IMG/VR virus record: IMGVR_UViG_3300015242_000020
Span: 62,001 to 126,000 of that record
Source: a virus
Direction: 5' to 3' (one strand)
Length of the DNA stretch: 64,000 bases
In this document: positions 5,196-20,829 of the stretch, piece after piece
How the letters are laid out: every line of letters begins with the position of its first letter
Position numbering within the stretch: position 1 is the first letter of the stretch
Translations under genes and position numbers: made by a program
The notes under the pieces: generated by a model
Told to the model about the DNA's origin: nothing
The model's input: the letters and a program-made list of their open reading frames with translations, nothing else
Database searches by the model: none

Positions 5196-5684
5196 TCACA
5201 GCCCGAAGCCCCACTCCGCATCGTCGTCCTCCGGCATCTGCTCGTAGTGGGTGCCGGTCAGATCCATCAGGTGAGTGGCCCGGGTGCCACCGTCGCCCTC
5301 GTTGATCAGGGCGTCCTTCTCGGCGGGGGTGAAGTTGCGCAGCGCCTGGCGCACGTGGGCGTACTGGCGCTCAGCCCGGGTGGCGTAGGCCATGTTGCCG
5401 AGCGGCTGGCCGTAGCTCGGCTCGTCCTCCTCCTCATCCCCGTAGGCGATCGGCAGCGCCGGGGAGGGCAGGTCACCCAGCTCCTCAGGGACCACCACGG
5501 CCTGGTGACTGGCGCGCATCCCGGTCAGACCGATCATCGGGTCATAGGTGGGATAGACGATGCGGTTGCCGTCCACGGGGTCTCCATTGCCGTCGAGGAT
5601 CTCTTCACCGGCCGGATGGTGGGCGGAGGAGTCGATGCTGAAGCGTTGCACGACACCATCGAGCTTGCCCTCAAACTGGGTCAT
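5196..5684 (-). CDS. Hypothetical acidic protein, 162 aa
   Basis: ATG at 5684 with GGGAGATAGAACT immediately upstream. Acidic, no TM segments, no Cys. The middle contains NMAYATRAERQYAHVRQAL, and helical NFTPAEKDALINEG lies in the C-terminal third. It follows the giant ART protein directly and is probably virion-associated, which is inference from position only. Confidence 0.65.
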   Translation of the reverse strand: MTQFEGKLDGVVQRFSIDSSAHHPAGEEILDGNGDPVDGNRIVYPTYDPMIGLTGMRASHQAVVVPEELGDLPSPALPIAYGDEEEDEPSYGQPLGNMAYATRAERQYAHVRQALRNFTPAEKDALINEGDGGTRATHLMDLTGTHYEQMPEDDDAEWGFGL

Positions 5685-5748: not shown

Positions 5749-8700
5749 TCAGTGCTGCTCTTCGGCGAGCAACTTCTCCTCGGAGGTCATGGCCGGCGGG
5801 GTGATGTGCTCGGGCACGACGGCAGCGTGCGTCACATCGCGGACCTGGGTAGAGGGATACCAGCCGCCACCGGAATCGGTCTCGATGTGATCGGGGTGCA
5901 GATAGACCTTCAGCAGCGCCGCGTTGTCCTTGCCGTGATTGGCCACCGCGTGATCCCAGGCACCCTGGGGATTGTCCGCAAAGTAGGTGCGGTGCGTGTT
6001 GCCTTTATCGATCTCCTCGATCGTGCCCTGGCCGCCCATCTCCCAGTTCGGCAGCCGAGGCTGGCGGAATCCACCGCTCCGGATATCGGCGGCACGACGC
6101 TTGGAGGTGCCATGCCAGTACGGACCGACCAGACCTGAAGCCTTGGCGTCGTCCTCGGACATGATCGGTCCGCGAGCGTTATGCCGGGATTCGTTCACCG
6201 GAACCAGGTCGCCGTATTCGTCGGGCCGCTCGGTGAGGTAGGGCGGCCACATGTCGGTGTGATCGGCGGTCTTCTCGCTCTCGGCAGGGTGCAGCACCAC
6301 ATGTAGCCTCGTGGTCTTGGCGAGAGTCTTGCCATCAATCGCGGCACGAAATGGAAAGTCATCGCGCATGTTGGCAGACTGCACCACGTACTTTCCTGGC
6401 GGCATGATGGCCTCGTGCAAGGTATTGCCGATCCCGCGTGAGTGATGCTGCCCCTGGATCTCATACACAACATGGCCGAACCCCGCCGCGACCTCCGGCC
6501 GCGTGGTGACAGAGGAGTTGCGGGCAAAGTTGATCATGGCACCAGGTTGATGCTTCTGAAGCAACGGCTTCCAGCCGGAGCGACCAGCAGAAAGCGCACC
6601 TCGGTACACGGTGTCGGGGACCTCGGGCGCGCCCTTCACCAGGTTGCGCATGCTCTTGCGCTCATCGCCGGACAGCAACTCACCGTTGCGCATCTTCTCC
6701 CAACGGCGGACTAGGTCTTCGTTCTCCGGGGAGAGCTGAGCGCGCCACTCCGCCCCTGCGCCTTTGGCATGCGCCTGATCATCCACAGTCTCCGAGGAAG
6801 TTTGTCCGACAATGACGTGATCCAGCAGGAAGCTCTCGGTACCGGCAGGCCCATCCACGGCTCCCAGCGTGTCCCTGACGGCCCAGCGCTCGCTCAATGC
6901 CTCCTGCACCGCTGCTGCCTCCGCTCGGGCCGCCACAACGCACTCACGGGTCTGGGCGAAGCCGATAGAGGGCAGGGCGACCTGGGCCTCGGCGGTAGCG
7001 GCGGCGTGCTGCTCCAGCCGGTCAGCGATCGCATCGAGCACGTCCACCACCTGCCCGGCGTAGGCCACAGCGGTCGGCATGCCGGTTACCTCGGGAGTCA
7101 GCGGAATGCCAGCCTGCTGTAGGTGGTCGGAGACGCTCAGATCAGGATCCTGAGCGGCGGTCTTGTGCCGGTGGTGCACGATCGTGTCGTAGCTGGCGTT
7201 GAACTGCGGGTGAAAGACCCCGTCCTCGGTGGCGTGCAGTTCGTCATGCACTTGCTTGGGGGATCGGCCGATGTCGCCCCGCTCGTAGCCGTGCTCATTG
7301 ATCAGATGCCAGCGCAGGTCGGAGTTGCCCTTGGGTGTGTCCAGCTCGTGCAGGGGATGACCGGGGTGGCCCTCGTACTTGGATGGGACGATGCCGACCT
7401 CAGTGGACTCGTCAGCGGAGAGTGCCGCCGTGTGGCGGATGCCCACGTCGCCGCTGATCGGCTGCCAGGTGTGCGCTCCGAGGTCGGACTGGGTCAGATC
7501 ATCGGCGTAGTCTATCTCGTGCCCAAGCTTGTCCATCCACTGTGGATCCGACGGGAGCGCGGCCTCCATGCTGGTGACGTGGACCGGAGCGCCGGGTTTG
7601 ATGAGCTTCTCGCTCTCGTTCTTGAAGTTCAGGCTGTTCCAGCCGTGCCCCTCTACCATCGCGTCCCGGAGCTTCTCCGGGTCTGTCTCGACGTGCTGAG
7701 GGTCGATCTGTCCATGCAGCATTACCGGCACCGTCATGGTGTTGTAGTACGGGAGATAAGTCCGTTGACCCTGCTCGGCGTTGTTCTTGTCACCATGCAT
7801 CGGACCCGCTCCGAAACCCTGGGCGATCTCCGGACGGGTGGTCCAGTGCGTGCCAATACCTTCCTGGCGCAACGCAAGGTTGCGTAGGTGCTCGTGCACG
7901 GCCGGCATGCCGCCCTGGGCATGGATGTCACGCAGTTCGTACGGATCGGTCTCGACCATTACCCCACGATGCAAAAGAGAAGCAGAAGCCGTCACGTACC
8001 GATCGCCCTCCGGCGGCCGGAGATCCACGATCTCACCAATGCCGTACTTGTCGTGGGTGATCACGCCGTCGTGGCCCTTGTCCATCAGGGCGTTGGAGAG
8101 CGCCTGACCGGTCAGCCCACCGTGCTGCTGTGAGAGCCGCTGCTTCCAGGCACCACCGTCGTGCTCAATGTGCAGAGGATTGGCGAAGGTGACGTCTCCG
8201 TGCTCCCAGCCCTCCGGTGGCGGGACATGCGGATCCTGCTCGGTGAGGTACTTGCCCCAGGGCTCGACGTCCTGGCTGAATCCGGGGACGTTGCGCATGC
8301 CGGAGTTGTTGCGCATGTAGTGGATCGTGGCGGCGGCGGTCTTGGGGTCGTGACTGCGATCGACGTCGACATTCTGTCCGGTGGTGGTGCGCCATTCGCC
8401 CAGCGAACCGAGCTGATAGCCCTGGGCGCCGGGCTTGGGGTGTGCTTTCACGATGCCGTGCTCGGCCGGGTTGGTAGCGGCAAAGCCGGCCAGGTCAGTG
8501 GAGAAAAATAGCGGGTCCGGATGCCCTCCGGCACCCTCCCGGAACGCGCTGAACCGCTTGTAGAGGTTAGCCGCGTCCTCGCGGCGTTCCTCGGGGCTCG
8601 CATCGCGTTGCCACAGCGTGTGCAGCTTTCCATTCGCACCCAGCGCGTCACTGTCGGGATGCGGAAGCCAGCCCGGCTCCTTGGCGTCCATCTCGTCCTG

Positions 8701-11058
8701 GCTGGCCAAGCCCTGCTTGATCTTCATCCCGTGCAGCGTGGCGTCCAGCTCTCGGGGAATCGGATCTCCCGGCTTCCAGGCCGAGTCGTAGTAATTGGCG
8801 ATGTCGGTGTGGAACGGCCGGCTGGTGCCCTCACCGCGCGCGGCGGAGTCCCACAAATTCTGCGGCGTGGTCTTTCCGGTCACCACGTTGTGAAACTCCT
8901 TGACCGAATGCAGGATGTTGCGGGCGGCCTGCGGTTCGTCGGTGTAGGAGATCGTGTCGTCCTCGCCACCGCCGAGGCCCTTGCCAAACTGCTGGGCCAG
9001 CTCGGCACGGGACTTCAGGCCCTGCTGGTGCACGGCGGGCACGTTGGTGGTGACGTGGTAGAGCGTCTTCGGCAGCGGCTTCCAGCTCAAGGCGCCGTTG
9101 CTCTGGTCGTGACCCAGCCCGCTGTAGCCCAGCTCCTGGGCATGCTCAGGACTGGTCTCTCCCATGGACAGCGAACGCCGAACATCATTGCGCCACTGAT
9201 GCCGATCGTTGCTGAAACGGTCGATGTCGTTGCCGTAATCCTCATACTTCGGCTCCGCTGACAGCGCCACCTTCACCGAGTGCCGGCCCTTGTCGCGGTC
9301 ATAGGAATTCGGCACCCGCACCGGGATCGTCGGATCTATCCAATGTGGAGTGTCAACGTCGAGCCGAATATCCTTACCGAACATCCGCTGGGCTTGCGCC
9401 TCATACTGCAGCGCGAGGGAGTGCGCGCACTGGCGGCCCTCGAATTTCTTCCACCTGCCGGTACGCCCCCAGGAATAGGCCGCCCACGCACAGCCACAAT
9501 TCCAGGCCCCCACGGTGCGGGAGCCGGGCACGAACACGATGTTGGTCTCATAGACGTTGGTGTCGCCCTGAACCTGACCGGTCAGCTCACCATTACGCCA
9601 GGCCAGAATCCGCACTCCACCAGACTTCCGGATGTCCTTGGCCTTCCGACGTACATCGGTCCAAGATGCCTGCACGTGAAAGAGGAAATCCGGCTCACCG
9701 GTATCCATGGCCTTGGTAGCGAATTTCATTGCTGAATCCCACAGCTTAGGCCACTCGAATTCTGGATCTTTGACGGTCGCGACCACCTCAGGCTGGGATT
9801 GCACTGGCCGGACCATATCCTCACTCGATTCGAATACCCTGTTGCGGCCCTTGTTCGGAGTGAAGCCAAACCCCCGGTAGAAATTCTGCAGCCGGGACTT
9901 GGTGCCGCCAAAGTCCGCTGAGGGGGTGAGGTCGACCCGCTTACCGTGTTGGTCAGCGTAATCGAGCAGATCCCGCATGTAGGCAGATCCCTTGCCCTGA
10001 CCGCGCCGGTCCTTGGGCACCACAATCTTGTTCAAAGTGAGCGAGTCGGGGCGTTCGGTCACGAAATGTTCGAGACCAGGATGACGAGCATCGAGATACT
10101 CCATCACTCCGGAATTCGCTGCAACCTTTGCAGCTTTGGCATGCTGGACCGGAACCTTCGGACCCCAGTACCCCTGCTCGGGGAGGTAATCGCCGGTCTG
10201 CTCGACATGCTCGGCCGGTACTTGGGCGGAGTAGACCGGCATGTCCTGGCTCGGGTCGGTCGGATGACGCCCAGCACTAGCGGCGTACTCCTTGGACAGT
10301 GAGACCCAATCCCCCGGATTGAAGTGTGTAGTGGATCCCGCCGGAGCGGACCGGTAAACCGTGACCATGCTGGAGCTGGGCTTCCCTCGCAGCTCGCGTA
10401 GTCGCTGCATGGTCTCGCCGATGCCGGGTTCGGATGTGTCGGCGTAATACTCCGGGTGGTCATAGGTGTCGGCAGGCAGCGCACTCTCACCACTGGTGAT
10501 GTCGGTGATCTTCGGACCGCGCTGTGGCCGATGGCTCATCCAGTATCCCTCGGCGGCCTGCTTGGCGGCAGTGTGCGGCATTGAGCTATTGAGGTTGTAG
10601 TGCACCCAGCCGTTGGCGTCGGCGGCAGGATGTGGCTCGTGCGGCCTCCAGGACACCCCCGTCACCTGGACATCCCGCCCCTTGCGTACGGGCACCTCCT
10701 GCTCCCAGTGCTCGGGGCCGTGCACCTCGCGACGGTTCAGCATAAAGGGGCGCGTTTCAATGTCCTCGGGCGCCGGGTGCTCGGCGTGCAGGACGATCGG
10801 CAGATCGCTGCTGCCCGTGCGGGGGCTCTTGCTCGCGAACTCCCGCGCCTGACCGAGATCGGTTGACCAGTGCATACCGAGGGCACGCCGGGATGTCTGA
10901 CTCAGAATCTTCTGGGCGATGTCCTCAGGAGATGCTGCGGGATCGTGGATGGCGTCATATGCCTTACCAGAGAGCCGGATAGAGATCCCCCGATGCACTG
11001 TTGGGGAAAACCCCTGCGCCCCGGTGATCAGCTCGGCGATGGCATCGATCTCGCTCAC
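5749..11058 (-). CDS. Giant multi-domain protein with repeated ADP-ribosyltransferase-like modules
   Basis: 1,769 aa. ART-like modules by motif: residues ~20-140 (HRGISIRL, HWSTD, EQEVPVRKG, an R/STD/ExE pattern); ~230-300 (VYRSAPAG, WVSLSKEY); ~666-880 (LYHVTTNVP, FFSTDLAGFA); ~1030-1120 (LHRGVMVE, THWTTRPEIAQGFG); ~1480-1590 (VYRGALSAG, VTTRPEVAAGFG); ~1645-1750 (YWHGTSKRRA, YFADNPQGAWDHA). A GNAT-like segment lies near 330-400 (VPKDRRGQGKGSAY) and a SWIM-type zinc motif near 515-545 (CGCAWAAYS, then CAHSLA). This mosaic resembles polyvalent or MuF-associated proteins packaged in heads and ejected with DNA. It lies three genes after portal. Whether every module is catalytic cannot be judged; several have weak third motifs. 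Likely role: modification of host proteins early in infection. Confidence 0.82.
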   Translation of the reverse strand: MSEIDAIAELITGAQGFSPTVHRGISIRLSGKAYDAIHDPAASPEDIAQKILSQTSRRALGMHWSTDLGQAREFASKSPRTGSSDLPIVLHAEHPAPEDIETRPFMLNRREVHGPEHWEQEVPVRKGRDVQVTGVSWRPHEPHPAADANGWVHYNLNSSMPHTAAKQAAEGYWMSHRPQRGPKITDITSGESALPADTYDHPEYYADTSEPGIGETMQRLRELRGKPSSSMVTVYRSAPAGSTTHFNPGDWVSLSKEYAASAGRHPTDPSQDMPVYSAQVPAEHVEQTGDYLPEQGYWGPKVPVQHAKAAKVAANSGVMEYLDARHPGLEHFVTERPDSLTLNKIVVPKDRRGQGKGSAYMRDLLDYADQHGKRVDLTPSADFGGTKSRLQNFYRGFGFTPNKGRNRVFESSEDMVRPVQSQPEVVATVKDPEFEWPKLWDSAMKFATKAMDTGEPDFLFHVQASWTDVRRKAKDIRKSGGVRILAWRNGELTGQVQGDTNVYETNIVFVPGSRTVGAWNCGCAWAAYSWGRTGRWKKFEGRQCAHSLALQYEAQAQRMFGKDIRLDVDTPHWIDPTIPVRVPNSYDRDKGRHSVKVALSAEPKYEDYGNDIDRFSNDRHQWRNDVRRSLSMGETSPEHAQELGYSGLGHDQSNGALSWKPLPKTLYHVTTNVPAVHQQGLKSRAELAQQFGKGLGGGEDDTISYTDEPQAARNILHSVKEFHNVVTGKTTPQNLWDSAARGEGTSRPFHTDIANYYDSAWKPGDPIPRELDATLHGMKIKQGLASQDEMDAKEPGWLPHPDSDALGANGKLHTLWQRDASPEERREDAANLYKRFSAFREGAGGHPDPLFFSTDLAGFAATNPAEHGIVKAHPKPGAQGYQLGSLGEWRTTTGQNVDVDRSHDPKTAAATIHYMRNNSGMRNVPGFSQDVEPWGKYLTEQDPHVPPPEGWEHGDVTFANPLHIEHDGGAWKQRLSQQHGGLTGQALSNALMDKGHDGVITHDKYGIGEIVDLRPPEGDRYVTASASLLHRGVMVETDPYELRDIHAQGGMPAVHEHLRNLALRQEGIGTHWTTRPEIAQGFGAGPMHGDKNNAEQGQRTYLPYYNTMTVPVMLHGQIDPQHVETDPEKLRDAMVEGHGWNSLNFKNESEKLIKPGAPVHVTSMEAALPSDPQWMDKLGHEIDYADDLTQSDLGAHTWQPISGDVGIRHTAALSADESTEVGIVPSKYEGHPGHPLHELDTPKGNSDLRWHLINEHGYERGDIGRSPKQVHDELHATEDGVFHPQFNASYDTIVHHRHKTAAQDPDLSVSDHLQQAGIPLTPEVTGMPTAVAYAGQVVDVLDAIADRLEQHAAATAEAQVALPSIGFAQTRECVVAARAEAAAVQEALSERWAVRDTLGAVDGPAGTESFLLDHVIVGQTSSETVDDQAHAKGAGAEWRAQLSPENEDLVRRWEKMRNGELLSGDERKSMRNLVKGAPEVPDTVYRGALSAGRSGWKPLLQKHQPGAMINFARNSSVTTRPEVAAGFGHVVYEIQGQHHSRGIGNTLHEAIMPPGKYVVQSANMRDDFPFRAAIDGKTLAKTTRLHVVLHPAESEKTADHTDMWPPYLTERPDEYGDLVPVNESRHNARGPIMSEDDAKASGLVGPYWHGTSKRRAADIRSGGFRQPRLPNWEMGGQGTIEEIDKGNTHRTYFADNPQGAWDHAVANHGKDNAALLKVYLHPDHIETDSGGGWYPSTQVRDVTHAAVVPEHITPPAMTSEEKLLAEEQH

Positions 11059-11363
11059 AGCACCGCCTCCACCGTCTTAATACTCGTGATCATGTCCGAG
11101 CCCACCACGATCCGACCGGGGAAGCCGACGCGCTGCTCACCGGTGGGATCCTCGCGGCGAATCTTGAAGTTGGACTCCAGCGACAGCGTGTCGGCCATGT
11201 CGAATGCCACCAACTCGGCTTCGATCTGATCCTCAGCTTCGACCCAGACGTACCGGGTGAACTTGTCGTAGTGCAGGTAGGGAGGCACGCAAGGACCGGC
11301 CTCGGGGGTCGCCATCCCGTGGCGACGTACCCCGAAGCCGATCTTCACGCAGTATCTCGACAC
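11055..11363 (-). CDS. Hypothetical protein, 102 aa
   Basis: GTG start at 11363 with AGGATAGGTGG just upstream. Contains YVWVEAEDQIEAELVAFDMAD, an amphipathic helix pattern, and ends in beta-rich sequence (RIVVGSDMITSIKTVEAVL). Overlaps the giant ART gene by 4 bases, so it is probably translated together with it. No family recognised. Confidence 0.65.
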   Translation of the reverse strand: MSRYCVKIGFGVRRHGMATPEAGPCVPPYLHYDKFTRYVWVEAEDQIEAELVAFDMADTLSLESNFKIRREDPTGEQRVGFPGRIVVGSDMITSIKTVEAVL

Positions 11364-11386: not shown

Positions 11387-11667
11387 AGGTCTTCGTATAC
11401 CTTTTCCGGCCAGTGCCAAGACCCGCCGTCGTAGGGCTCGCTGCTGCCCTCCGGCAGCGACTGCTGGTGGCAGCCACCTTCGGCCAGTGAGTGGAAGAAA
11501 AACCCAGTGGGGTTGAGCGCTACCAGACCGATGAGCCCAGGATCGTGCTCGTCCACCTCGGTGATGACCGCCGCTCGACACTGCCGGGTGTACTGCTGCG
11601 TCCCATCCGCGCGCAACGGCGAGCCCACCGACACGTAGTGCACTATCCGACCCACGGATGGCTTCAT
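11383..11667 (-). CDS. Small conserved-type phage protein, 94 aa
   Basis: Starts MKPSVGRIVHYVS, has a CRAAVITEVDE segment and ALNPTGFFFH, and ends with GGSWHWPEKV. This layout is common among actinophage proteins of unknown function and looks like a small beta-barrel. Overlaps the 2H-phosphoesterase gene by 4 bases. Confidence 0.7.
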   Translation of the reverse strand: MKPSVGRIVHYVSVGSPLRADGTQQYTRQCRAAVITEVDEHDPGLIGLVALNPTGFFFHSLAEGGCHQQSLPEGSSEPYDGGSWHWPEKVYEDL

Positions 11668-13574
11668 TGACCCTCGATCCCTAGAAAGTCCAGCACGTCG
11701 TGCGGGTCGGCATCGGAGGCAAAGTAGGCCCGGCGCAGGCCGGCCTGAATGTAGACCGTCTTGCCCTCTCCGACGTCATACAGCGCGAGCTGGTGGGCAT
11801 TGCGACCGACCTGCTTGGCCTTCTCGAAATCCGGATAGTGATGGCTGACGTCGAGATAGACCTTCTTCGACTCCGGGTCATGCCAGGCACCGAAGTAGGC
11901 GTTCGGTGAGGCCAGCTCCTTCTGATGCTGATCCAGGTAGCCCTGAATGTGCTGCGGGCCGAATCCACCCTCCGGAAAGGCCTGCTCAGTGGACTTGTTC
12001 TTGCTGACCATGTAGCCGGCCTTGGGGCCATCCCCGAGGTGGTCCTTGACCGAGAATCCGCCGTTCTTGTGGATGGCGTCGATCAGCTCGCGCGGAGCCA
12101 ACAGGGCCTCGACGGTTGCGTCGGGATCTTGGTCTCCACGGAGTGCCGCAATCTCGGCCTGCAGGATCGCGTGCGCCTTCCCAGCGTGAGCCGGCAGGAT
12201 ATGGAAGGTGATGCCGGGCTTACCTTCTGTCTCGGTGGATGCGCCAGTGGACCGGATGAACTCGACCTCAGAGTCAGGGATCTCCTCGGGGCTCGGATAA
12301 GACTTCGACCGCGCCCGATGCGTCTGTACGTACCAACCGTCGTCGTCCTGCATCGGTCCACCGACCTCAGCAAAACGCGGGTCCTTAGCGGCCACACCCA
12401 GCTGACGGGCGTTCGGGCCGGGCTCAGAGATCGGGCACTGAGACTGCTGATTCCAGTCCCGGCCGCAACGCCCCCGCATCTGGGGTACCCAGCGGGCCTG
12501 CCCGGTCTGCAAGGTCTTTTGGACGTCGAGATTCTTCGGGAATATGCAGCGCTGGTTGAAGCGGAATTTGCACCAGTCGTAATTCACTCCGGACGCGGGA
12601 GGATTACCAAAGAAACCGGACCAAAAACCGGCCTCTTTGCTGGCTGCGAGCTGCTGGTCGAACTGGTCTTCGGTCGTATCGGCCTCTGGGTCCTCTCCAG
12701 CCGACTCGTCATACTGCTCGCCCGCACCGGTGAGCGGGTAGTGCGTCCAGTCATCTCCCTGAGCCAGTACCAGGGACGGGATCTGAAACTGAGTCGGCTC
12801 GACCGGATCGGGGGCGGGCTCTCCCTCTAGCAGGTAGGTGCGGGTGCTGTGCGGAGTGAAACCGTGGTCATGGGCGACATCGACCCCGGCGGCCTCCAGC
12901 GCGGTCACCAGTGAGCCATGCAGCGACGGCAGCACGTCGCCGGGGGCGTCCACCGGAGCGTAATGCGGCACACCATCCTCGCCGGCCGGAAACTGACCCG
13001 CACCTCCGACGGAGGCATCGATCGGGCCGAGCATGCCGGCGTGGTTGGCCACCACGTCATGGGCTGCGGCCAGCTGCTCGGGGCTGGGGCTGGGCAGATA
13101 GGCCAGCGTGACGTGCATCTGCTCCGGCGGCAGCCCACCAGGAACGGCAATCTTGCTGGCCACCTCCGGTGGGATGGGCAGCGCGACCATGGCCGAGTGG
13201 GAGTGATCTCCCCCGTCATCGGCCTGCTTGTGTAGCGCGGTCACCGCGCCGTAAAGCGCGTCGGCACCGGTGAGCAGACCGGCCAGGTATTCCACGGCGG
13301 AAATGGAGTGCGGTGGTGGTGGCTTGCGGTCCAGGATGTCGCCCAGCTCGGGGTAGGACTCTGTGGCCACCTCGGCAGTCTTGGATGCCGTGCGCGGTCG
13401 CAGCTCCTGCGAGGAGTACGTGCCACCACCGAGATTGTTGTCGAGGGTCACCTCGTAATGCTCATTCCCGGGCCCTGGGCCGTCCAGGACGGCCTCCACG
13501 GTGCCGGGGTAGCCCTCTACCGTGGTGACGGCATCTCCGGGCCTGTGGCTCCACCACAACTCACTGTTCACCAC
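11664..13574 (-). CDS. 2H-phosphoesterase fusion protein, virion-associated candidate
   Basis: 636 aa. Residues ~125-265 carry two His-x-Thr/Ser motifs of the 2H phosphoesterase (LigT/CPDase) family: HVTLAYLPSP and FTPHSTRTYL. Known 2H enzymes cleave 2',3'-cyclic phosphates, 2'-5' linkages or cyclic oligonucleotides. Residues ~330-385 are Cys-rich (DWCKFRFNQRCIF, CGRDWNQQSQC). The C-terminal ~130 residues (NGGFSVKDHLGDGP, VYLDVSHHYPD) resemble a domain found in large phage polyvalent proteins. The start overlaps the portal stop. Placement between portal and the giant ART protein suggests it is packaged or ejected; its substrate is unknown. Confidence 0.78.
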   Translation of the reverse strand: MVNSELWWSHRPGDAVTTVEGYPGTVEAVLDGPGPGNEHYEVTLDNNLGGGTYSSQELRPRTASKTAEVATESYPELGDILDRKPPPPHSISAVEYLAGLLTGADALYGAVTALHKQADDGGDHSHSAMVALPIPPEVASKIAVPGGLPPEQMHVTLAYLPSPSPEQLAAAHDVVANHAGMLGPIDASVGGAGQFPAGEDGVPHYAPVDAPGDVLPSLHGSLVTALEAAGVDVAHDHGFTPHSTRTYLLEGEPAPDPVEPTQFQIPSLVLAQGDDWTHYPLTGAGEQYDESAGEDPEADTTEDQFDQQLAASKEAGFWSGFFGNPPASGVNYDWCKFRFNQRCIFPKNLDVQKTLQTGQARWVPQMRGRCGRDWNQQSQCPISEPGPNARQLGVAAKDPRFAEVGGPMQDDDGWYVQTHRARSKSYPSPEEIPDSEVEFIRSTGASTETEGKPGITFHILPAHAGKAHAILQAEIAALRGDQDPDATVEALLAPRELIDAIHKNGGFSVKDHLGDGPKAGYMVSKNKSTEQAFPEGGFGPQHIQGYLDQHQKELASPNAYFGAWHDPESKKVYLDVSHHYPDFEKAKQVGRNAHQLALYDVGEGKTVYIQAGLRRAYFASDADPHDVLDFLGIEGQ

Positions 13575-15714
13575 TGGCCTGCTCCTGCTCTACGTCGTCC
13601 TCGGGGGTGAGGTGCCGAGGGTGCCGGCGGGATCCGAGATGCGTGGGATCACTAAGAAACCTTAGACTACCCGTCGGTCGGGGCATGCCGGCGCGCATCT
13701 CATCCGACTCTGGCGGGCGAGCCTGATTACGGGGCAGCGGGATCAGCTGACCACCTGCGGTGTCCTCCTGTGCTCCGCCCGGTCCGGCCGGTAGAGCCAG
13801 TGGCACCCCCGGAGGCTGCATCAGCTCACCCGGCGTCGCCGCCAGGTTGGGGGTGGTCGGGTCATCCACCCCCAGCTGCGGCATCCGAGTGGGGTCAGAG
13901 GCGGGGGCGCCACCGGGCGGTGCCATGCCCATCTGCATGTCGGGCTGCAGGATGGCGTCTTGGGCCTGCTGCTGCTTTTCGATCTCGTCGTGGTTGATCA
14001 CCTTGGGCTCGAAGTCCTGGGCCAAATCATCCGGCACCGGCAGACCCTTGGCGCGCAGCGTCAGGTAGGTCTCCTTGCGGGTCTCCTGCTCCTCCACCGC
14101 GAGCTGCACTCGCTCATCCCGGGATAGATCTATCTCATCCTGCAGGTTCAGTCCGGCCTGATTCATGGCCTTCATCCGGGTCTGCATGGAGATCGGCACT
14201 CCGGCCGCACGCAGCGCCTCGATGAAACCGATCCGGTCAGTTTCGGACTTCATCGACATCGAAGCCATCTGCACATCGGGCACCAGCAGCTTGGGCTGCT
14301 CCTCGATCACCCGCTGGCCATCCTCGGTGATCACCAGGACCTCTTCGTTGATCACGTACCGCTTGCCGTTGCGCTCGTCGTAGTCGTAGTGCTCCTGGGC
14401 CTCGGCGACCACCGTCATGCGCTCTTTTAGGAAGCGCTTCAGCTTGCGCTGGTAGGTGGTCAGCAGCTGGCTGATCAGGTCCCGGTTCAGCGCATCGGCA
14501 GCATAGGTCTGACCCTGGGAGGCACCCGAGAGCATCGTCTCCGACAGCCCGAAGGTCTGCAGCTTCCGTTCCTTGAGCCGGTCGAAGTCATTGTCCAGGT
14601 TCGGCATGTTCTCCCGGCCGAAGACACTCGACATCTCCACCGCGAAGTGGGTGGCCAGCACCCGGAAGTCAGCGGCGAGGGCGGCATCGACGTCGGCCAG
14701 AAAGTTCTGCAGGTCCCCCTGGCTCGGCACCCATGGTCGCTCGGTCCCCAGGTCGGTGGCGCTGGCGCCGATCCGGGCGTGGATCAGCGGAGTGTAAAAC
14801 CGGCTGGCAATGGCGTCCTGGGCGGCGTTGAGCATCTCCTCTTGGATGCAGGGGCGCAGCGCGCGCAGCAGGATCGGCAGGCCCCGGGGGTTGAACGTGT
14901 CACCGGTGAATTTGATCTGCTTCAGCAGGGTGTTGGAGACCGGCATCTTCCGGTCAATACCCAGGGCGAAATCCTTCAGCTCCGGGTAGGCCTGAATCAG
15001 CGACTCGTATTCCCATTTCGGGTCCTTGGTCTGCAGCACCCGACGAAAGGATTCCGGCAGTGTCATAAAGAATCGAGGCTGCCGCAGAAACGGGCTTTTC
15101 TCCACCGTGATGTCATCGGGCTGAATCAGCTCGTCGGACTCCCAGATGCCGAGAGTCTCATCGAAGTACGCCATCGGCCATGCCTCACCGACGGTCCAGT
15201 ATTCCCGGCCGATGGACTCCAGGTATTCCTCGTAATTGAGGTCGTCCTCGTCGAAGAGCAGCGACGTGTAGAAATCCACCAGCTGGGAGGACTTGCAGTT
15301 CAGCTCGATCCCCAGCACCGGGTACTTGGAGTACACGTCGATGCAGGAGGCCAGGATCGGGTCCGACCGGTAGATAAACCGGCACCATTCGCGCAGCTCG
15401 ATGAGTACCTTTTCGTCGTCGACGTCATAGGGCATGCCGGACTCGCGCCAGTAAAACATCGGGTCCAGCGGGCGCTGGGTGGCGAAGGAGTAGTTGGAGC
15501 CCGAGCCGGAGCTGGTCGCGGCGGCGAACTTCTGGTTGGTGCGCCGCACCTGGGCAGCATGGTGCAGCTCACCGGGGTCGGCCGAGATCGAGCCCTGCTT
15601 GCCCAGCTGCAGAGCGCGCTGTACGTCGGAGGCACCCCGAGCCACCAGGATCGAGGTCTCGGGGTTACTGCGCCGGCCCATGCCCCGGCGGTCGGTGACC
15701 TCAAAGTCAGCCAC
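13561..15714 (-). CDS. Portal protein
   Basis: 717 aa. An N-terminal region with MFYWRESGMPYDVDD and LREWCRFIYRSDPILASCIDVYSKYP leads into a long helical body with QIKFTGDTFNPRGLPILLRALRP and the LSETMLSGASQGQTYAADALNRDL segment, which is typical of dodecameric phage portals. The C-terminal ~150 residues are Pro/Gly/Met-rich and probably disordered. Portal forms the DNA entry vertex and binds terminase. It lies about 21 kb from the large terminase gene, an unusual separation. The gene contains one family-A and one family-B palindrome. Confidence 0.88.
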   Translation of the reverse strand: MADFEVTDRRGMGRRSNPETSILVARGASDVQRALQLGKQGSISADPGELHHAAQVRRTNQKFAAATSSGSGSNYSFATQRPLDPMFYWRESGMPYDVDDEKVLIELREWCRFIYRSDPILASCIDVYSKYPVLGIELNCKSSQLVDFYTSLLFDEDDLNYEEYLESIGREYWTVGEAWPMAYFDETLGIWESDELIQPDDITVEKSPFLRQPRFFMTLPESFRRVLQTKDPKWEYESLIQAYPELKDFALGIDRKMPVSNTLLKQIKFTGDTFNPRGLPILLRALRPCIQEEMLNAAQDAIASRFYTPLIHARIGASATDLGTERPWVPSQGDLQNFLADVDAALAADFRVLATHFAVEMSSVFGRENMPNLDNDFDRLKERKLQTFGLSETMLSGASQGQTYAADALNRDLISQLLTTYQRKLKRFLKERMTVVAEAQEHYDYDERNGKRYVINEEVLVITEDGQRVIEEQPKLLVPDVQMASMSMKSETDRIGFIEALRAAGVPISMQTRMKAMNQAGLNLQDEIDLSRDERVQLAVEEQETRKETYLTLRAKGLPVPDDLAQDFEPKVINHDEIEKQQQAQDAILQPDMQMGMAPPGGAPASDPTRMPQLGVDDPTTPNLAATPGELMQPPGVPLALPAGPGGAQEDTAGGQLIPLPRNQARPPESDEMRAGMPRPTGSLRFLSDPTHLGSRRHPRHLTPEDDVEQEQASGEQ
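13652..13665. promoter_or_regulatory. Family-A palindrome inside portal gene
   Basis: CTAAGAAACCTTAG. The portal codons across it are CTA AGG TTT CTT AGT (L-R-F-L-S), all uncommon in this GC-rich gene, implying the DNA sequence is maintained for another reason. Confidence 0.6.
14123..14134. promoter_or_regulatory. Family-B palindrome inside portal gene
   Basis: GATAGATCTATC, a perfect 12-bp palindrome. It forces codons ATA GAT CTA TCC (I-D-L-S), with rare ATA and CTA. Confidence 0.6.
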
Positions 15715-16216: not shown

Positions 16217-16703
16217 CGTCCCCGTCCGGGTCGTAGTGGGCGGCGTTGCGCAGCAGTAGTGCCGAGGCCAGGGAGACCACCTGGTCCTGCTCCTCGGTGT
16301 CCAGTACGGCCATCACCGGTGCCAGAGAGGGGTCAGAGCGCACCCGGCCGGCCACAAAGTCAGCGGCCTCCTCCGCGATCGTGGCCAGGTCATCGAGTAC
16401 CCCGGCCTCCCCGAGCGCATGGATCAGGCCCTCCTCACCGGAGGAAGCCACCGTCTCCCGGACGGCAGTCACCGAGATCGGGGGTGGCGCATCCAGTGAG
16501 TCGGCCAGGAGCGAGCGCTCAACGGCCTCTGTGGCCATCAGCTGACCGAGGGAAAGGTATTGCACCCGGCCGGCCGCTTTCCCGGTGGAAAACAGCACGT
16601 GGCCGCCATCCCCGGAGATGGACAGCAGCCGGCCGCAGTCGTTGGCCCGCAGCACTCCCTGCGGCCCTCCGACGTAGCGGACCCGGGCACCTTCGATGAG
16701 CAT
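16209..16703 (-). CDS. Hypothetical protein, 164 aa, virion region
   Basis: The start is set at ATG 16703 (MLIEGARVRYVGG), which overlaps the upstream stop as TGATG; the frame's earlier in-frame codons lie inside the neighbouring gene. N-terminal beta-rich segment (VRYVGG, GRLLSISGDGGHVLFS), then a helical C-terminal half with acidic DTEEQDQ. Ends DGDDG. Position suggests a head or assembly protein. Confidence 0.66.
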   Translation of the reverse strand: MLIEGARVRYVGGPQGVLRANDCGRLLSISGDGGHVLFSTGKAAGRVQYLSLGQLMATEAVERSLLADSLDAPPPISVTAVRETVASSGEEGLIHALGEAGVLDDLATIAEEAADFVAGRVRSDPSLAPVMAVLDTEEQDQVVSLASALLLRNAAHYDPDGDDG

Positions 16704-18778
16704 CAGGCCCGTACCAGCTCCGGATGGGCCCGGATGGTCTGGGTGGCTACCGCGACGCACTGTCGCAGCGTCAGGCTGGGATTGGAGGCCAGCACGTCGG
16801 AGGCGATCTGGTCGATCTTCTCCATCGGGCTCTGGTACTTGGCTCCGGTGGTGGCCGGGGTGTTGGCCTGGGAGAAATCATCGGAGGGGGAGGGGAGTGG
16901 CGCCATCGAGGTGCCATCGGCTGCCGCACCGGACTCCAGCGCCGGATTCGGCAGCGCATCCCCGAGCTGCCCACCACTGGAGGTGTCGCCGAACTGGCTG
17001 GAGGCATCAGGGGTCAGACCCAGCTGGCCAGGGTCATCATCAGGGGAGGGCATCGTGCCCATGGAGGCCGGGTTGCCCGGACCGTTGACCGTGAACGGGT
17101 TGTCAGCGGTGATGGTCAGCGTGGTCGGCACCTGCCAGGTCAGGTTGGTGTTGCTGACGTTGGTCGCCGATCCGGTCATGATGGTGCTCACCACCGAGGG
17201 CTGACTGACCTTTAGCGACTCCTCGGCCACCAGCCACGGCGCGCTGGGCTTCAGCTCGTTGCCGTCGGCGGTGTTCTTCACCTCGGTGTCTCCCAGCGGT
17301 ACCCGATTGGCGTCGGTGTACTCGTCATGGATCCAGCCAGGCGTGGCCGGTGGATCAACATGCTGGTACCGGTCGGCACCGAAGGCGTCCTCGTTGAGCG
17401 CGACCGGATGGAAGGCACCCTCCTTGTCGAGGTAGCCCCAGTTCATGCCGGAGTGCTTAGACCACTCCATGGCCCGGAACGCCGCCTCGGCCTTCTCCTG
17501 CGAGTCGTGGTGGGAGAGCACTTTGCCGGTGCCCTTCTGGGTGATCACCCACTCATCGCCACGCTTCTCGATGTACTGATTGGCCGACTTCAGCAGCGCA
17601 TGTACGAGGTTGCGGCCGACCAACTCCTCGACCCGGGCGCGGGCTTCCTCCTTCGTGGGGTGGGTGCCCATCACCTGCGGGATGCCATGCTCATTGATGA
17701 TCGCCGAGTGCCAGCCATCGCCCGGCTTGGCCTCGGCCACCCGGGGGGCGCGACCCAGCTTGTTGCCGTGCACGTCGTAGAGGGCGTCCCCGTTCCAGGT
17801 CATCCAGTTCTCCGCTCGCGCGGTCTTGGTGGCCTGGCGTCCCTGCTCCTGCACGGCGGCCGGTGCCGGCTCTCCGTGGTGGCGTTCGGCCTTCTCGGCG
17901 GCATCGGGCACATTGGCGTACAGCGCCGCCTGCTGCGCGAGTGCCTGCGCCTTGGTCGGGTGGGTGCCCTTGACGTCACCGATCGCATTGACCACCTTGA
18001 ACTTCCCGGCGTCCTCACGGACGTAGTACGGCGCGTTGTCTGAGGTGACCTGTAGCGAGCCCTGCACGTAGGGGTCGGGGTCGGCCGGCTCGGAGTGGTC
18101 GTCATACCAGCCCGGGTTCATCTTCTGATCCTGGGCGGCCTCCTGGCCCTTCTCTACGCCGCTCTGGTAGTCGGGGTGACCACCGTGCTCGGCCAGGCCG
18201 GCGTTGTCGTCGTAGAGACCGTCCTCGTAGCCGGAGTCATACCGGGCCTGGTCGAATGGATGCTGCACGTCGGAGGGATCGATCTCCCCGTCGGCCTCAA
18301 CCGTAAAATTTGGCTCCCGCCCCAGCGCCAGGGAGTACAGCTCGGTGAGATCGGCCAGGTCGACCGGGTCAGTGCTGGCCAGCGCCAGTGCCTCGATCTC
18401 CTCGGCGAGTGCCTCGGCAATCTCACCCCGAGTGGCGAGCTGATGCAGCGGCCCATCCTCATCGGCCCAGTCAGCGGCCAGGGTCTTGATCCGGGCGTCC
18501 ACCTTGGCCTGCAGCAGCAGGCCGTGGTCCTCCTTCAGGGAGGTGCGCACCTGATCCAGTAGCGCGGTGTCCTCCGGGGAGACCTGTGCCACCGCCTCGG
18601 TGACCCGGTCGGCCACCAGCATGTACCGGGCGTCGTACTCTCCGGGCGATCCGGCGGCGGCCAGGAATGCCCACGCCACCTGCTGGGCGGCGACCTTGGC
18701 CATGGCGTACACGCGCTGGTTCTGCTCGGCGGCGACATCGGTGGCTGCCGTGCTCCACATCATCTCGCTGGCGTCCAT
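16703..18778 (-). CDS. Long virion-region protein with internal THPTK repeats, 691 aa
   Basis: The N-terminal ~150 residues are helical (AMAKVAAQQVAWAFLAAAG). Residues ~255-450 contain three related ~40-residue units: GDVKGTHPTKAQALAQQ, GIPQVMGTHPTKEEARARV and GTGKVLSHHDSQEKAEAAF. Each is a beta strand pair followed by a helix. The region after ~500 is Thr/Ser/Pro/Asp-rich with a short helical C-terminus (LRQCVAVATQTIRAHPEL). Probably a minor structural or internal virion protein by position; no family recognised. Confidence 0.7.
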   Translation of the reverse strand: MDASEMMWSTAATDVAAEQNQRVYAMAKVAAQQVAWAFLAAAGSPGEYDARYMLVADRVTEAVAQVSPEDTALLDQVRTSLKEDHGLLLQAKVDARIKTLAADWADEDGPLHQLATRGEIAEALAEEIEALALASTDPVDLADLTELYSLALGREPNFTVEADGEIDPSDVQHPFDQARYDSGYEDGLYDDNAGLAEHGGHPDYQSGVEKGQEAAQDQKMNPGWYDDHSEPADPDPYVQGSLQVTSDNAPYYVREDAGKFKVVNAIGDVKGTHPTKAQALAQQAALYANVPDAAEKAERHHGEPAPAAVQEQGRQATKTARAENWMTWNGDALYDVHGNKLGRAPRVAEAKPGDGWHSAIINEHGIPQVMGTHPTKEEARARVEELVGRNLVHALLKSANQYIEKRGDEWVITQKGTGKVLSHHDSQEKAEAAFRAMEWSKHSGMNWGYLDKEGAFHPVALNEDAFGADRYQHVDPPATPGWIHDEYTDANRVPLGDTEVKNTADGNELKPSAPWLVAEESLKVSQPSVVSTIMTGSATNVSNTNLTWQVPTTLTITADNPFTVNGPGNPASMGTMPSPDDDPGQLGLTPDASSQFGDTSSGGQLGDALPNPALESGAAADGTSMAPLPSPSDDFSQANTPATTGAKYQSPMEKIDQIASDVLASNPSLTLRQCVAVATQTIRAHPELVRA

Positions 18779-18807: not shown

Positions 18808-20829
18808 TCAGGCGTCCATGCCGACGTAGACCTCGCGTACCGGGGTCTGTACGTAGTCCTCGCTGGCGATCTCGGCGGCGATGACCATCAGGTCGCCATC
18901 CACCCAGATCGTGCCGCTACGGCTCGCTGAAGCCGCCAGCTCGTGGTCCCGGGAAGCGGTGGCGATCATCTGGTCGGTGCGGGCGTCATACAGGCTGGCC
19001 TTGGTGGCTCCGGGGGTTTCCGGGCTGCTCATCGTCTGCGGGTCGCCATCAGGGGCGTCGGGCCACTCACCCTCATCGCCGGGCCCGAGGGAGACCGAGT
19101 CGTTGGGGTCTGCGATCGGGGTGAAGTCCACACCGGAATTCAGTCCATCGGGCTCCGGGGTGACGGCGGTCTTCGCGCTGTTGTTGCGAATGGACTCGTT
19201 GTTGGCCTGCCCGCTCCAGGGCGACGACGCCATATCGACCTTCCAGTTCGCGTTAGCTGCCTCATCGGCGTTGCGGAACTGGCTGCGCACCTTCTGGATC
19301 GCATGCTCAGGACCGTGTCCGGCCGGTACGGAGACTGTCTCGGAGTGCTTGGCGCCGGAGGGATGGGTGAACGAGACCTGGTACTGGCGACCGGCACCAC
19401 TGGGACTGTTGGCGCTGACTTCCTCATCGTTGGCCTCACCGCTCCACGGAGAGGCAGCGGCGGCCTTCGGCGCCGACATCGACTGGGTGGCCTTGACGAA
19501 CCGGCCGGAGTCGAACTTGGGGTTTCCCTGGGCGAAGTGATCGGCGAAGTGCTTGGCGACGGAGTCCTTGTCGCCCGGGTAGGAGGCGATCGCGTTCGCC
19601 ACGTGCTGGTAGTGGCCCCGGCTGTAGTTGGCCGTGCCAACGCCGCCACGCACCTGGTATCCCTTGGACCCGGCGGCCTGCTGAAACTGGTCGCGGCGGT
19701 AGTGCGGGTTGGTGCCCATCAGGTGGTCAGCGAAGTGCTTGGCCAGCTGGTCGCGCTCGGGGTGGGTGGCAATCGTCGAGGCCAGGTCCTCGTAGTGCCG
19801 GCGAGCCCAGGCCACGGCGAGCCGCTCCATCAAGGCTTGGCGCTTGGCGCCCATCGAACGCACCGTGCCCGAGGGAGGCAGCACGGTCGGGCTGGCTGGG
19901 GTGTTGTCCACCGTCGGGGTGGCATCGCCGGAGTCACCGGCGTTGTTCTCCACGGCCGAGTCCGAGATCGGGTCGCCGCCACCGTCACCGGCCGGTTCGT
20001 TGCCCTCACCGAGGGAGAGGTTGTCGCTCGGGTCGGAGTGGGCCACCTCAGCGTCACCGGTGGGGGCCGGTGCGTTGATGTCATCCATCGGCTCGGATTC
20101 CACCAGCGGGGCGGTGATGGTGTCGTTGTTCGGGGTGGTGAGCATGTCGTTGGCGACCGTGTGGCCGGCCAGGTGACCCACGTGGTCCAGAAAGGTGCGC
20201 TGGGCAACCCCGGCGTCCTCACCGAACTGGCTGGCCAAGTGCGCAGACATGCCGATCGCCTGGATAGCGAACTCCTCATGGTCGTCCCGGATCGCCTGGG
20301 CGGTGCGGGTGAACCACATGCTGGCCTCGGCGACCATCTTCTGGTCGCGCTCCATCGCGGTGTGCTCCGGCGCCTCCACATCCATGATCCAGTCCGAGGC
20401 CATCGAGGTGCGGATGGTGCCCGGGTTGGGGTTGTGGCTCCAGCGGTCCTGCGGCGCCTGGCTTTCGAAGTTCAGGCTGGCCTCATACCGCTGGGTGCTG
20501 ATCCGCTCACTGCGGAGGTTCTCCAGCTCGGCGGCCAGGGTGCGCTGGGTCTGCAGGGTGGACGCGGCGGCCATGGCCTGCAGCAGGTCTACCTCCCGCT
20601 GCCGTGGCGAGATAGTTGTATCCGCCGCCTGCTCGGTGGACGCGGTCTTCTGCGGGGCACTTTGCATGCTCTGCTCCTGAGATTGAGCCATCTGCCGGCG
20701 GATTTTCTTCTGGTCACTGGAGGGGGCCCGACGGATGACCGACGGCAGCCGGCCACCCATGGGCTCGAACGTGGGCTCGTCCTCGGGGTCGACCCGCTTG
20801 GAGCGCGCTGCCACGTGGTGCTTGCCCAC
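18808..20829 (-). CDS. Long virion-region protein with internal AKHFADH repeats, 673 aa
   Basis: GTG start at 20829 (GGAGGG just upstream). A basic N-terminus and helical region (residues ~75-235) precede a ~70-residue Asp/Asn/Pro-rich linker. There is then an internal duplication: HYEDLASTIATHPERDQLAK and HYQHVANAIASYPGDKDSVA, each followed by HFADH..G NP and an Arg/Phe helix (DNA ~19.69-19.82 kb and ~19.49-19.62 kb). A third motif, SPWSG(E/Q)AN(D/N)E, occurs twice. The C-terminus has DGDLMVIAAEIASED. Likely a structural or internal virion protein; function unknown. Confidence 0.7.
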   Translation of the reverse strand: MGKHHVAARSKRVDPEDEPTFEPMGGRLPSVIRRAPSSDQKKIRRQMAQSQEQSMQSAPQKTASTEQAADTTISPRQREVDLLQAMAAASTLQTQRTLAAELENLRSERISTQRYEASLNFESQAPQDRWSHNPNPGTIRTSMASDWIMDVEAPEHTAMERDQKMVAEASMWFTRTAQAIRDDHEEFAIQAIGMSAHLASQFGEDAGVAQRTFLDHVGHLAGHTVANDMLTTPNNDTITAPLVESEPMDDINAPAPTGDAEVAHSDPSDNLSLGEGNEPAGDGGGDPISDSAVENNAGDSGDATPTVDNTPASPTVLPPSGTVRSMGAKRQALMERLAVAWARRHYEDLASTIATHPERDQLAKHFADHLMGTNPHYRRDQFQQAAGSKGYQVRGGVGTANYSRGHYQHVANAIASYPGDKDSVAKHFADHFAQGNPKFDSGRFVKATQSMSAPKAAAASPWSGEANDEEVSANSPSGAGRQYQVSFTHPSGAKHSETVSVPAGHGPEHAIQKVRSQFRNADEAANANWKVDMASSPWSGQANNESIRNNSAKTAVTPEPDGLNSGVDFTPIADPNDSVSLGPGDEGEWPDAPDGDPQTMSSPETPGATKASLYDARTDQMIATASRDHELAASASRSGTIWVDGDLMVIAAEIASEDYVQTPVREVYVGMDA
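20610..20623. promoter_or_regulatory. Family-B palindrome inside gene
   Basis: AGATAGTTGTATCC, within the 18808-20829 gene. Codons across it are GAT ACA ACT ATC (D-T-T-I), atypically A/T-rich for this gene. Confidence 0.55.

What the first reader, a model, noticed from the sequence alone, without database searches (positions are those of the whole stretch)
5749..11058. 1,769-residue ejected-effector candidate with about six ADP-ribosyltransferase-like modules
Motifs of ART folds recur near residues 20, 230, 666, 1030, 1480 and 1645, with a GNAT-like segment and a SWIM-type zinc motif between them. Phages such as T4 inject single-domain ARTs (Alt); here many modules share one chain downstream of portal. 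Inference: a packaged multi-effector protein that modifies several host targets.
Basis: partly seen in the sequence, partly recalled or inferred. Interest (0 to 1): 0.78.

Follow-up and report, generated by a model that had tools for sequence, protein, structure and literature searches.

The report
Split multi-ART polyvalent protein of actinophage
A large virus of soil actinobacteria encodes, next to its head genes, a 1,769-residue protein that strings together several predicted ADP-ribosyltransferase modules, an acetyltransferase and a conserved zinc-binding core. [quoted passage not shown]

Summary
The ORF is real: 5749-11058, minus strand, 1,769 codons, GTG start. It lies in the head-gene cluster of a 135.6-kb actinophage-type genome, between portal/2H ligase and prohead protease/capsid.

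ART evidence is graded. Modules at 20-141 and 1029-1171 are homologous, keep an R-S/T-ExE pattern, and have relatives linked to an ADP-ribosylglycohydrolase and fused to NUDIX. Module 172-301 is an ART-like phage family. The 1485 module is supported by motif only; 666 and 1645 are suggestive only. A seventh candidate lies at 906-1022. GNAT and SWIM are confirmed.

The conserved part is the SWIM core (zinc ligands kept in essentially all of 66 chains); 55 of the 66 also carry a conserved C-terminal tail, and most close relatives an SH3-like N-terminus. Here this chassis is split over a coupled operon. Relatives swap Arr, NUDIX, 2H and GNAT modules into it; a Streptomyces phage-plasmid has a one-ART version.

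Verdict: a polyvalent virion-effector protein (known kind), with R-S-E-type ARTs on an undescribed SWIM/tail chassis. Packaging and activity are untested.

The parts
13561..15714 (-). portal protein gene (upstream context)
   Evidence: phrog_2833 portal E 3e-128; tblastn to cluster-C-type actinophage portals 30-35%; Streptomyces phage-plasmid portal E 2.5e-201
11664..13574 (-). first gene of the split chassis: SH3-like N-terminal domain (residues 2-93), 2H/2'-5' RNA ligase domain (about 107-287), Cys-rich domain (326-391)
   Evidence: PF13563 E 2e-8; residues 2-93 match the N-termini of SWIM-core proteins in L028, L029, L034-L038 and L041 (E to 1.7e-23), and the 2H part lies inside the SWIM chain of L039/L040
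11383..11667 (-). small coupled ORF, 94 aa, 4-nt overlap with the gene before it
   Evidence: ORF and junction read; phrog_2293 E 1e-18
11055..11363 (-). small ORF, 102 aa, stop overlaps the GTG start of the large ORF by 4 nt, with GGAGG upstream
5749..11058 (-). the 1,769-aa multi-module protein (P0001)
10636..11007 (-). module M1, residues 18-141: R-S-E ART-like (R23, S65/T66, E119xE121)
   Evidence: family of 16 stretches; A5 profile finds it in 15 of 27 phage records; AF2 confident; alignment
10138..10566 (-). module M2, residues 165-307: phrog_2579-type ART-like module (R236, S253/S255, E294)
   Evidence: phrog_2579 E 1e-24; AF2 pLDDT 85-95; structural matches to phage polyvalent, ParB and DarB-like proteins
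9805..10107 (-). GNAT acetyltransferase module, residues 318-418 (RRGQGKG acetyl-CoA loop)
   Evidence: PF14542/PF00583 sub-threshold; phrog_10691 E 2e-22; 57% identical to the GNAT of a polyvalent protein that also carries PF18760 ART-PolyVal
9388..9672 (-). SWIM-type zinc core, residues 463-557 (C521, C523, C544, H546)
   Evidence: syntenic in 7 cultured phages; zinc ligands conserved in essentially all 66 chains; PF04434 above cut-off in relative L040
8344..9096 (-). module D, residues 655-905: suggestive H..Y..E ART-like pattern (H668, Y705, E888) with a long helical insert
   Evidence: about 43% identical in L094, a 1,247-aa multi-module phage protein; AF2 inconclusive
7993..8343 (-). module DC, residues 906-1022: conserved alpha/beta module (R916, E1009), possible seventh ART-like domain
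   Evidence: 60% identical to Gordonia phage Skog gp167; solo or fused in L020, L025, L026; AF2 pLDDT 80-88
7546..7977 (-). module E, residues 1028-1171: R-S-E ART-like (R1031, T1073/T1074, E1148xE1150), homologous to M1
   Evidence: E 3.5e-32 in the M1 family profile; motif
6820..7113 (-). helical module H, residues 1316-1413, shared with the C-termini of two other proteins of the same genome
   Evidence: L011:13835-15409 and L011:15430-16335, profile E 2e-44
6214..6606 (-). module F, residues 1485-1615: R-S-E ART-like by motif (R1486, S1515/T1518, E1549)
   Evidence: motif and weak self-similarity to module E (E 0.012); no relatives found
5794..6126 (-). module G, residues 1645-1755: suggestive H-Y ART-like (H1649, Y1692)
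   Evidence: motif; weak pairwise profile similarity to Arr; no relatives
5196..5684 (-). 162-aa gene carrying the conserved C-terminal tail of the family (residues about 107-150)
   Evidence: phrog_30974 781-822/824 and phrog_2940 1231-1271/1279; tail of 20+ SWIM chains

Best explanation
P0001 is the main cargo-bearing part of a polyvalent protein made late from the head-gene operon. It is probably built into the virion head through the SWIM core, SH3-like N-terminus and C-terminal tail (in this phage separate polypeptides of one operon that would have to reassemble), and enters the host with the DNA. There its modules would modify host proteins or RNA early in infection: R-S-E ARTs with ExE motif at 20 and 1030, probably 1485; an ART-like module at 230; possibly H-type ARTs at 666 and 1645; a GNAT; and the co-encoded 2H phosphoesterase. 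The likely purpose is to redirect host machinery or blunt NAD/nucleotide-based defence. Shown here: the ORF, gene order, domain homologies, conservation pattern, split architecture and module swapping. Inferred: ART catalysis, packaging, injection, targets.
For: Position: portal - 2H ligase - P0001 - prohead protease - major capsid, the same order as in seven cultured actinophages, whose gene at this spot carries the same SWIM segment. The SWIM core is found in 64 viral loci; among 84,980 species genomes it gave one hit, a 149-kb MAG contig. Zinc ligands are kept in essentially all of 66 chains; the C-tail sits within 23 residues of the C-terminus in 55. Cargo varies: Arr ART (PF12120 above cut-off), NUDIX, 2H, GNAT, in chains of 264-1,904 aa. 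The M1/E ART family is independently tied to ADP-ribose biology: Phrappuccino gp195 has three copies and lies near an ADP-ribosylglycohydrolase gene (PF03747 E 2e-48), and another record fuses two copies to NUDIX. AF2 of 1-312 is confident; the top three PDB neighbours are TreX, IcmQ and CNFy, which I know to have ART-type folds, with PARP10/14/15 and cholera toxin also listed. GNAT is 57% identical to a polyvalent-protein GNAT on the same chain as PF18760.
Against: No ART family of Pfam or NCBIfam is hit by any P0001 module. The Foldseek ART matches are not significant one by one (best E 0.33). Models of 666, 1480 and 1645 failed. Most SWIM-core relatives carry no M1-type ART, so ART cargo cannot be the family's core role, and some M1 copies in relatives have lost the catalytic motifs (L034 529-606, L037 558-638). 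No virion proteomics found covers this gene; in the passages read, the Myrna capsid paper (PMC7150772) discusses gp98 nearby, not gp96.
Confidence: 0.62

Rival explanations
1. Head morphogenesis protein first: the SWIM core, SH3-like domain and tail do a structural or DNA-binding job in head assembly, and the ART, GNAT and other modules are passengers, many non-catalytic.
For: Only SWIM and tail are conserved, between portal and protease; an intein-like insert sits at the zinc site in L041, the usual kind of spot for inteins in conserved functional motifs; degenerate M1 copies exist.
Against: Cargo repeatedly consists of known effector enzymes (Arr, NUDIX, 2H, GNAT), and most M1-type copies keep the catalytic motif; relatives range from 264 to 1,904 aa, which suggests selection on cargo.
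Confidence: 0.22
2. A late cytoplasmic enzyme that modifies host proteins in the producing cell (like T4 ModA/ModB) and is not injected.
For: ARTs also act without packaging (ModA/ModB, PMC5512222); no packaging data exist here.
Against: Gene position inside the head cluster and a conserved tail in a head-operon protein; late genes act too late for most host take-over.
Confidence: 0.1
3. The modules are not ARTs but other small alpha/beta domains with look-alike motifs.
For: No significant sequence or solved-structure match to any known ART.
Against: R..ST..ExE conserved family-wide; ART-fold proteins rank first in Foldseek; glycohydrolase and NUDIX partners.
Confidence: 0.15

Closest known systems
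Streptomyces phage-plasmid pRLB1-9.1 protein WP_164331358.1 (750 aa, annotated hypothetical)
   Same: SH3-like N-terminus, SWIM core, one M1-type ART and C-tail; same portal, protease and capsid neighbours
   Different: single chain, one ART; no GNAT, no M2, no modules 655-1769
Cluster-C-type actinophage 'LysM' proteins (MoMoMixon/Bxz1 gp97, Myrna gp96, Phrappuccino gp52, Skog gp157, CherryTomatoes gp93, E3 gp76, Finch gp16; phrog_2940, phrog_30974)
   Same: syntenic gene with the same SWIM core and C-tail
   Different: 31-38% identity in the core; other cargo (LysM, disordered); no ART modules detected in this chain
Polyvalent proteins (Iyer et al. 2017, PMC5512222)
   Same: many unrelated enzymatic domains on one phage polypeptide near head genes; GNAT similar to that of a polyvalent protein; multi-ART examples up to 12 copies
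   Different: their ART is H-Y-D type (ART-PolyVal PF18760), while the best-supported ARTs here are R-S-E type; the authors said R-S-E ARTs of the Alt/VIP2 family were not in genuine polyvalent proteins; SWIM/tail chassis not mentioned in the passages read
T4 Alt (Alt/VIP2 R-S-E ART, packaged and injected)
   Same: R-S-E triad; virion-effector logic
   Different: Alt is described as a packaged effector without the other modules seen here; no match to an Alt family in the libraries searched
Phrappuccino gp195 (2,030 aa, three M1-type ARTs, hypothetical)
   Same: multi-ART chain with the same M1 family, next to a virion structural gene
   Different: no SWIM core seen; different locus, with an ADP-ribosylglycohydrolase nearby

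Membership tests
Polyvalent proteins (PMC5512222) | 2-15 domains with unrelated activities in one polypeptide | tested here: met
   GNAT, SWIM, ART-like M1/M2/E and others in one ORF
Polyvalent proteins (PMC5512222) | phage gene in a portal-terminase head context | tested here: met
   portal, protease and MCP neighbours
Polyvalent proteins (PMC5512222) | shares domain families with known polyvalent proteins | tested here: met
   GNAT 57% to L093, which carries PF18760; phrog_10691; M2 fold in a 'large polyvalent protein associated domain' protein
Polyvalent proteins (PMC5512222) | ART of H-Y-D type / ART-PolyVal PF18760 | tested here: not met
   no PF18760 in P0001 at E<=1; M1, E and F are R-S-E type. 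An ART is common but not required for the class, so class membership stands
Polyvalent proteins (PMC5512222) | packaged in the virion and injected | not testable with these tools
   needs virion proteomics
ADP-ribosyltransferase superfamily | R-S/T-ExE (or H-Y-E) catalytic pattern conserved in family | tested here: met
   M1/E family alignment; only motif-level for F, D, G
ADP-ribosyltransferase superfamily | ART fold | tested here: inconclusive
   confident model of 1-312; best PDB neighbours ART-fold but E 0.33-0.87; 641-1769 model failed
ADP-ribosyltransferase superfamily | match to a curated ART family | tested here: not met
   none for P0001; met for other modules of relatives L034/L037 (PF12120). 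For this reason the modules are called ART-like, not filed in a named ART family
ADP-ribosyltransferase superfamily | NAD-dependent transfer activity | not testable with these tools
   wet-lab assay needed
SWIM zinc finger (PF04434) | CxCx(n)CxH | tested here: met
   C521, C523, C544, H546; ligands kept in essentially all 66 chains
SWIM zinc finger (PF04434) | PF04434 match above cut-off | tested here: inconclusive
   not in P0001; above cut-off in orthologue L040 (22.4 vs 19.6 bits)
MuF-fused phage toxins | MuF domain | tested here: not met
   no MuF hit in Pfam or PHROGs

The most novel reading that the evidence does not exclude
An undescribed virion-effector platform: a SWIM zinc core plus a C-terminal tail acts as a head-loading chassis onto which large actinophages swap NAD/ADP-ribose/RNA-directed enzymes. 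In this phage the chassis is split over the genes of one operon and loaded with up to seven ART-type domains, including R-S-E ARTs of a kind not previously reported in polyvalent proteins.
Probability: 0.35. Interest if true: 0.75.

Novelty: new variant of a known kind. Interest (0 to 1): 0.56.

Why it matters
Large actinophages, including cultured, widely studied cluster C phages of M. smegmatis, carry a syntenic gene between portal and protease mostly annotated as 'LysM' or 'hypothetical'. This work links those genes by a conserved zinc core and tail and suggests they are one interchangeable effector-delivery family. It also suggests that the 'ParB C-terminal domain' label (phrog_2579) hides an ART-like module. 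If the tail is a packaging signal, it would be a short portable tag for loading proteins into actinophage heads, and the multi-ART cargo would give a way to find which host proteins a phage modifies first.

Tried and rejected
Reading the finding as a + strand gene: rejected, the open frame is on the minus strand. Direct Pfam, NCBIfam and PDB sequence identification of the ART modules: nothing. Relatives of F and G in cultured phages, viral contigs and 26 related records: none. AF2 of 641-1769 with a thin alignment: only 908-1018 usable, so its Foldseek list was discarded. All-against-all HHalign between module families: no significant links. Using M1-family rows in the 641-1769 alignment: misaligned onto module D and dropped. 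The C-tail as a tag shared with other head proteins: it was found only in SWIM-core proteins and split partners of them. A defence-system reading: one negligible PADLOC hit. Macro, NUDIX or ADP-ribosylglycohydrolase elsewhere in this phage's own record: none.

Full report
WHAT IS THERE. The window is bases 62001-126000 of a 135,564-base virus record. The reported interval is one open frame on the minus strand, 1,769 codons, GTG start with GGAGG upstream, overlapping the preceding ORF by 4 nt. A frame this long is about 10^-21 likely at the window's GC content. Reading direction is from high to low coordinates: portal 13561-15714 (phrog_2833, E 3e-128); ORF 11664-13574 with a 2H/2'-5' RNA ligase domain (PF13563); two small ORFs; P0001; a 162-aa ORF (5196-5684); then, beyond small ORFs, a 1,056-aa head maturation protease and the major capsid protein. 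The same order occurs in Bxz1-type, Myrna, Phrappuccino, Pupper-type, Skog, Finch and E3 phages.

WHAT IS CONSERVED. P0001 463-557 matches the gene between RNA ligase (or portal) and protease in all seven cultured relatives examined (phmmer E 6e-8 to 2e-12; alignment). This segment carries C521xC523-x20-C544xH546, a SWIM-type zinc motif. A profile scan fetched 64 viral loci; in 84,980 prokaryote species genomes it gave a single hit, on a 149-kb MAG contig that I take to be a phage. Across 66 chains every row with a residue at the four ligand positions keeps it (one gap each at three of them), and 55 of 66 carry a conserved tail (...FTPAEQ.ALINEG...ASNLDRLDL.GTHY...) within 0-23 residues of their own C-terminus. 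In most close relatives an SH3-like N-terminal domain is on the same chain; the name SH3-like is a reading of the sequence pattern, not a tested fold.

WHAT IS DIFFERENT HERE. In this phage the N-terminal domain, together with 2H and a Cys-rich domain, is on ORF 11664-13574; the SWIM core is in P0001; and the tail is on ORF 5196-5684. Locus L043 also has the tail on a separate ORF. So the 1,769-residue protein is the middle and cargo part of a chassis that is normally one chain. Whether the split parts reassemble is unknown.

CARGO IN RELATIVES. The same chassis carries Arr-type ARTs above the Pfam cut-off (L034, L037), GNAT (L045), NUDIX (L041, L042, L044), 2H (L039, L040), and in L041 an intein-like Hint insert within the zinc motif. 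Chain length ranges from 264 to 1,904 aa. The minimal version, on the Streptomyces phage-plasmid pRLB1-9.1, is SH3-SWIM-one M1-type ART-tail in 750 aa, with portal (E 2.5e-201), protease (6.5e-81) and capsid (6.5e-138) homologues alongside. This makes Streptomyces or a near relative the likeliest host (inference).

THE ART MODULES, GRADED. (a) 20-141 and 1029-1171: one family (E 3.5e-32 after iteration), with R in 'HRG', S/T in 'HW[ST]' and [ED]xE conserved. Relatives occur in Myrna gp78, Bxz1-type 'ParB-like' proteins and Phrappuccino gp195 (three copies in 2,030 aa). Phrappuccino has an ADP-ribosylglycohydrolase gene (PF03747, E 2e-48) a few genes upstream of gp195, and another record fuses two copies to NUDIX. 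From established knowledge, ExE ARTs usually modify arginine and this hydrolase class reverses that linkage; the pairing supports, but does not prove, ART activity. (b) 172-301: phrog_2579, labelled 'ParB C-terminal domain', with R236, S253/S255 and E294. AF2 of 1-312 with 14 sequences gave pLDDT 78.7 overall, 85-95 in this module. In the PDB the top three neighbours are TreX, IcmQ and CNFy (E 0.33-0.87), with PARP10, PARP14, PARP15 and cholera toxin lower down; that these share ART-type folds is my knowledge, and no single match is significant. In BFVD the model matches phage proteins named ParB-like, polyvalent-associated and restriction-enzyme-like. (c) 1485-1615: R-S-E by motif and weak likeness to 1029-1171; no relatives. 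(d) 655-905 and 1645-1755: H-Y-type patterns only. The first has one relative, L094, itself a multi-module protein with further ART-like motifs. (e) 906-1022: a conserved alpha/beta module found alone or fused in other phages (60% to Skog gp167), well modelled but unassigned. AF2 of 641-1769 was otherwise unusable (pLDDT 41.5).

OTHER MODULES. GNAT 318-418 resembles that of known polyvalent proteins: a 57% identical copy lies in L093, a 1,845-aa ORF that also bears PF18760 ART-PolyVal. Segment 1316-1413 is a helical domain shared with the C-termini of two other proteins of the same genome.

MECHANISM. Most likely a polyvalent virion protein: made late, incorporated into the head through the chassis, carried into the host with the DNA, and acting early by ADP-ribosylation and acetylation. 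Established by computation here: ORF, synteny, homology, conservation, split architecture, cargo swapping. Inferred: packaging, injection, catalysis, targets. The main rival is that the SWIM/tail part is a head morphogenesis protein with passenger domains.

RELATION TO KNOWN SYSTEMS. Polyvalent proteins (PMC5512222) already include multi-ART chains, one with 12 copies, and phage members are typically encoded with a portal-terminase packaging system. Head-packaged ARTs are described as frequent in myoviruses (PMC9503650). What I did not find described is the SWIM/tail chassis and the presence of R-S-E ARTs in such proteins; [quoted passage not shown] Literature coverage was limited to open-access text, so earlier description elsewhere is possible.

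Noticed in passing
L041:8972-13909 (+): Intein-like Hint insert placed inside the SWIM zinc motif of a relative (...FEGRQC | FLPGTQ... HTYAVDDLVVFN | CSHVTAL...).
   Followed up: partly
L095:877-10450 (Phrappuccino gp194-gp195), gp191 just upstream: Cultured mycobacteriophage Phrappuccino encodes a 2,030-aa hypothetical protein with three M1-type ARTs, next to a virion structural gene and near an ADP-ribosylglycohydrolase.
   Followed up: partly
L096 (NZ_CP041653.1): Streptomyces plasmid pRLB1-9.1 carries portal, prohead protease and HK97 capsid homologues of this phage: it looks like a phage-plasmid with the minimal one-ART version of the protein.
   Followed up: yes
L094:1561-5301 (+): 1,247-aa ORF of another phage with several ART-like motifs and a ParB-like stretch; shares module D (about 43%).
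   Followed up: partly
L013:1848-3575, L002:11383-12816: Proteins annotated 'ParB-like nuclease' or 'ParB C-terminal domain' in cluster C mycobacteriophages contain M1- and M2-type ART-like modules; the label may mislead.
   Followed up: partly
L011:13835-15409 (-) and L011:15430-16335 (-): Two adjacent proteins of this genome end in the same roughly 97-residue domain as P0001 1316-1413; function unknown.
   Followed up: no
L034 529-606 and L037 558-638 of their SWIM chains: Degenerate M1-type copies lacking the HWS/T and ExE motifs: apparent pseudo-ARTs from duplication.
   Followed up: no
L092 (CAIPNE010000714.1): 149-kb contig binned as a gammaproteobacterial MAG encodes the actinophage-type SWIM protein with tail and is probably a mis-binned phage.
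   Followed up: no
window 16703-18778 and 18808-20829 (-): Two large proteins (691 and 673 aa) upstream of portal with little or no family match; 691 aa has DUF2188-like and phrog_3684 segments. Candidate further head or internal proteins.
   Followed up: no
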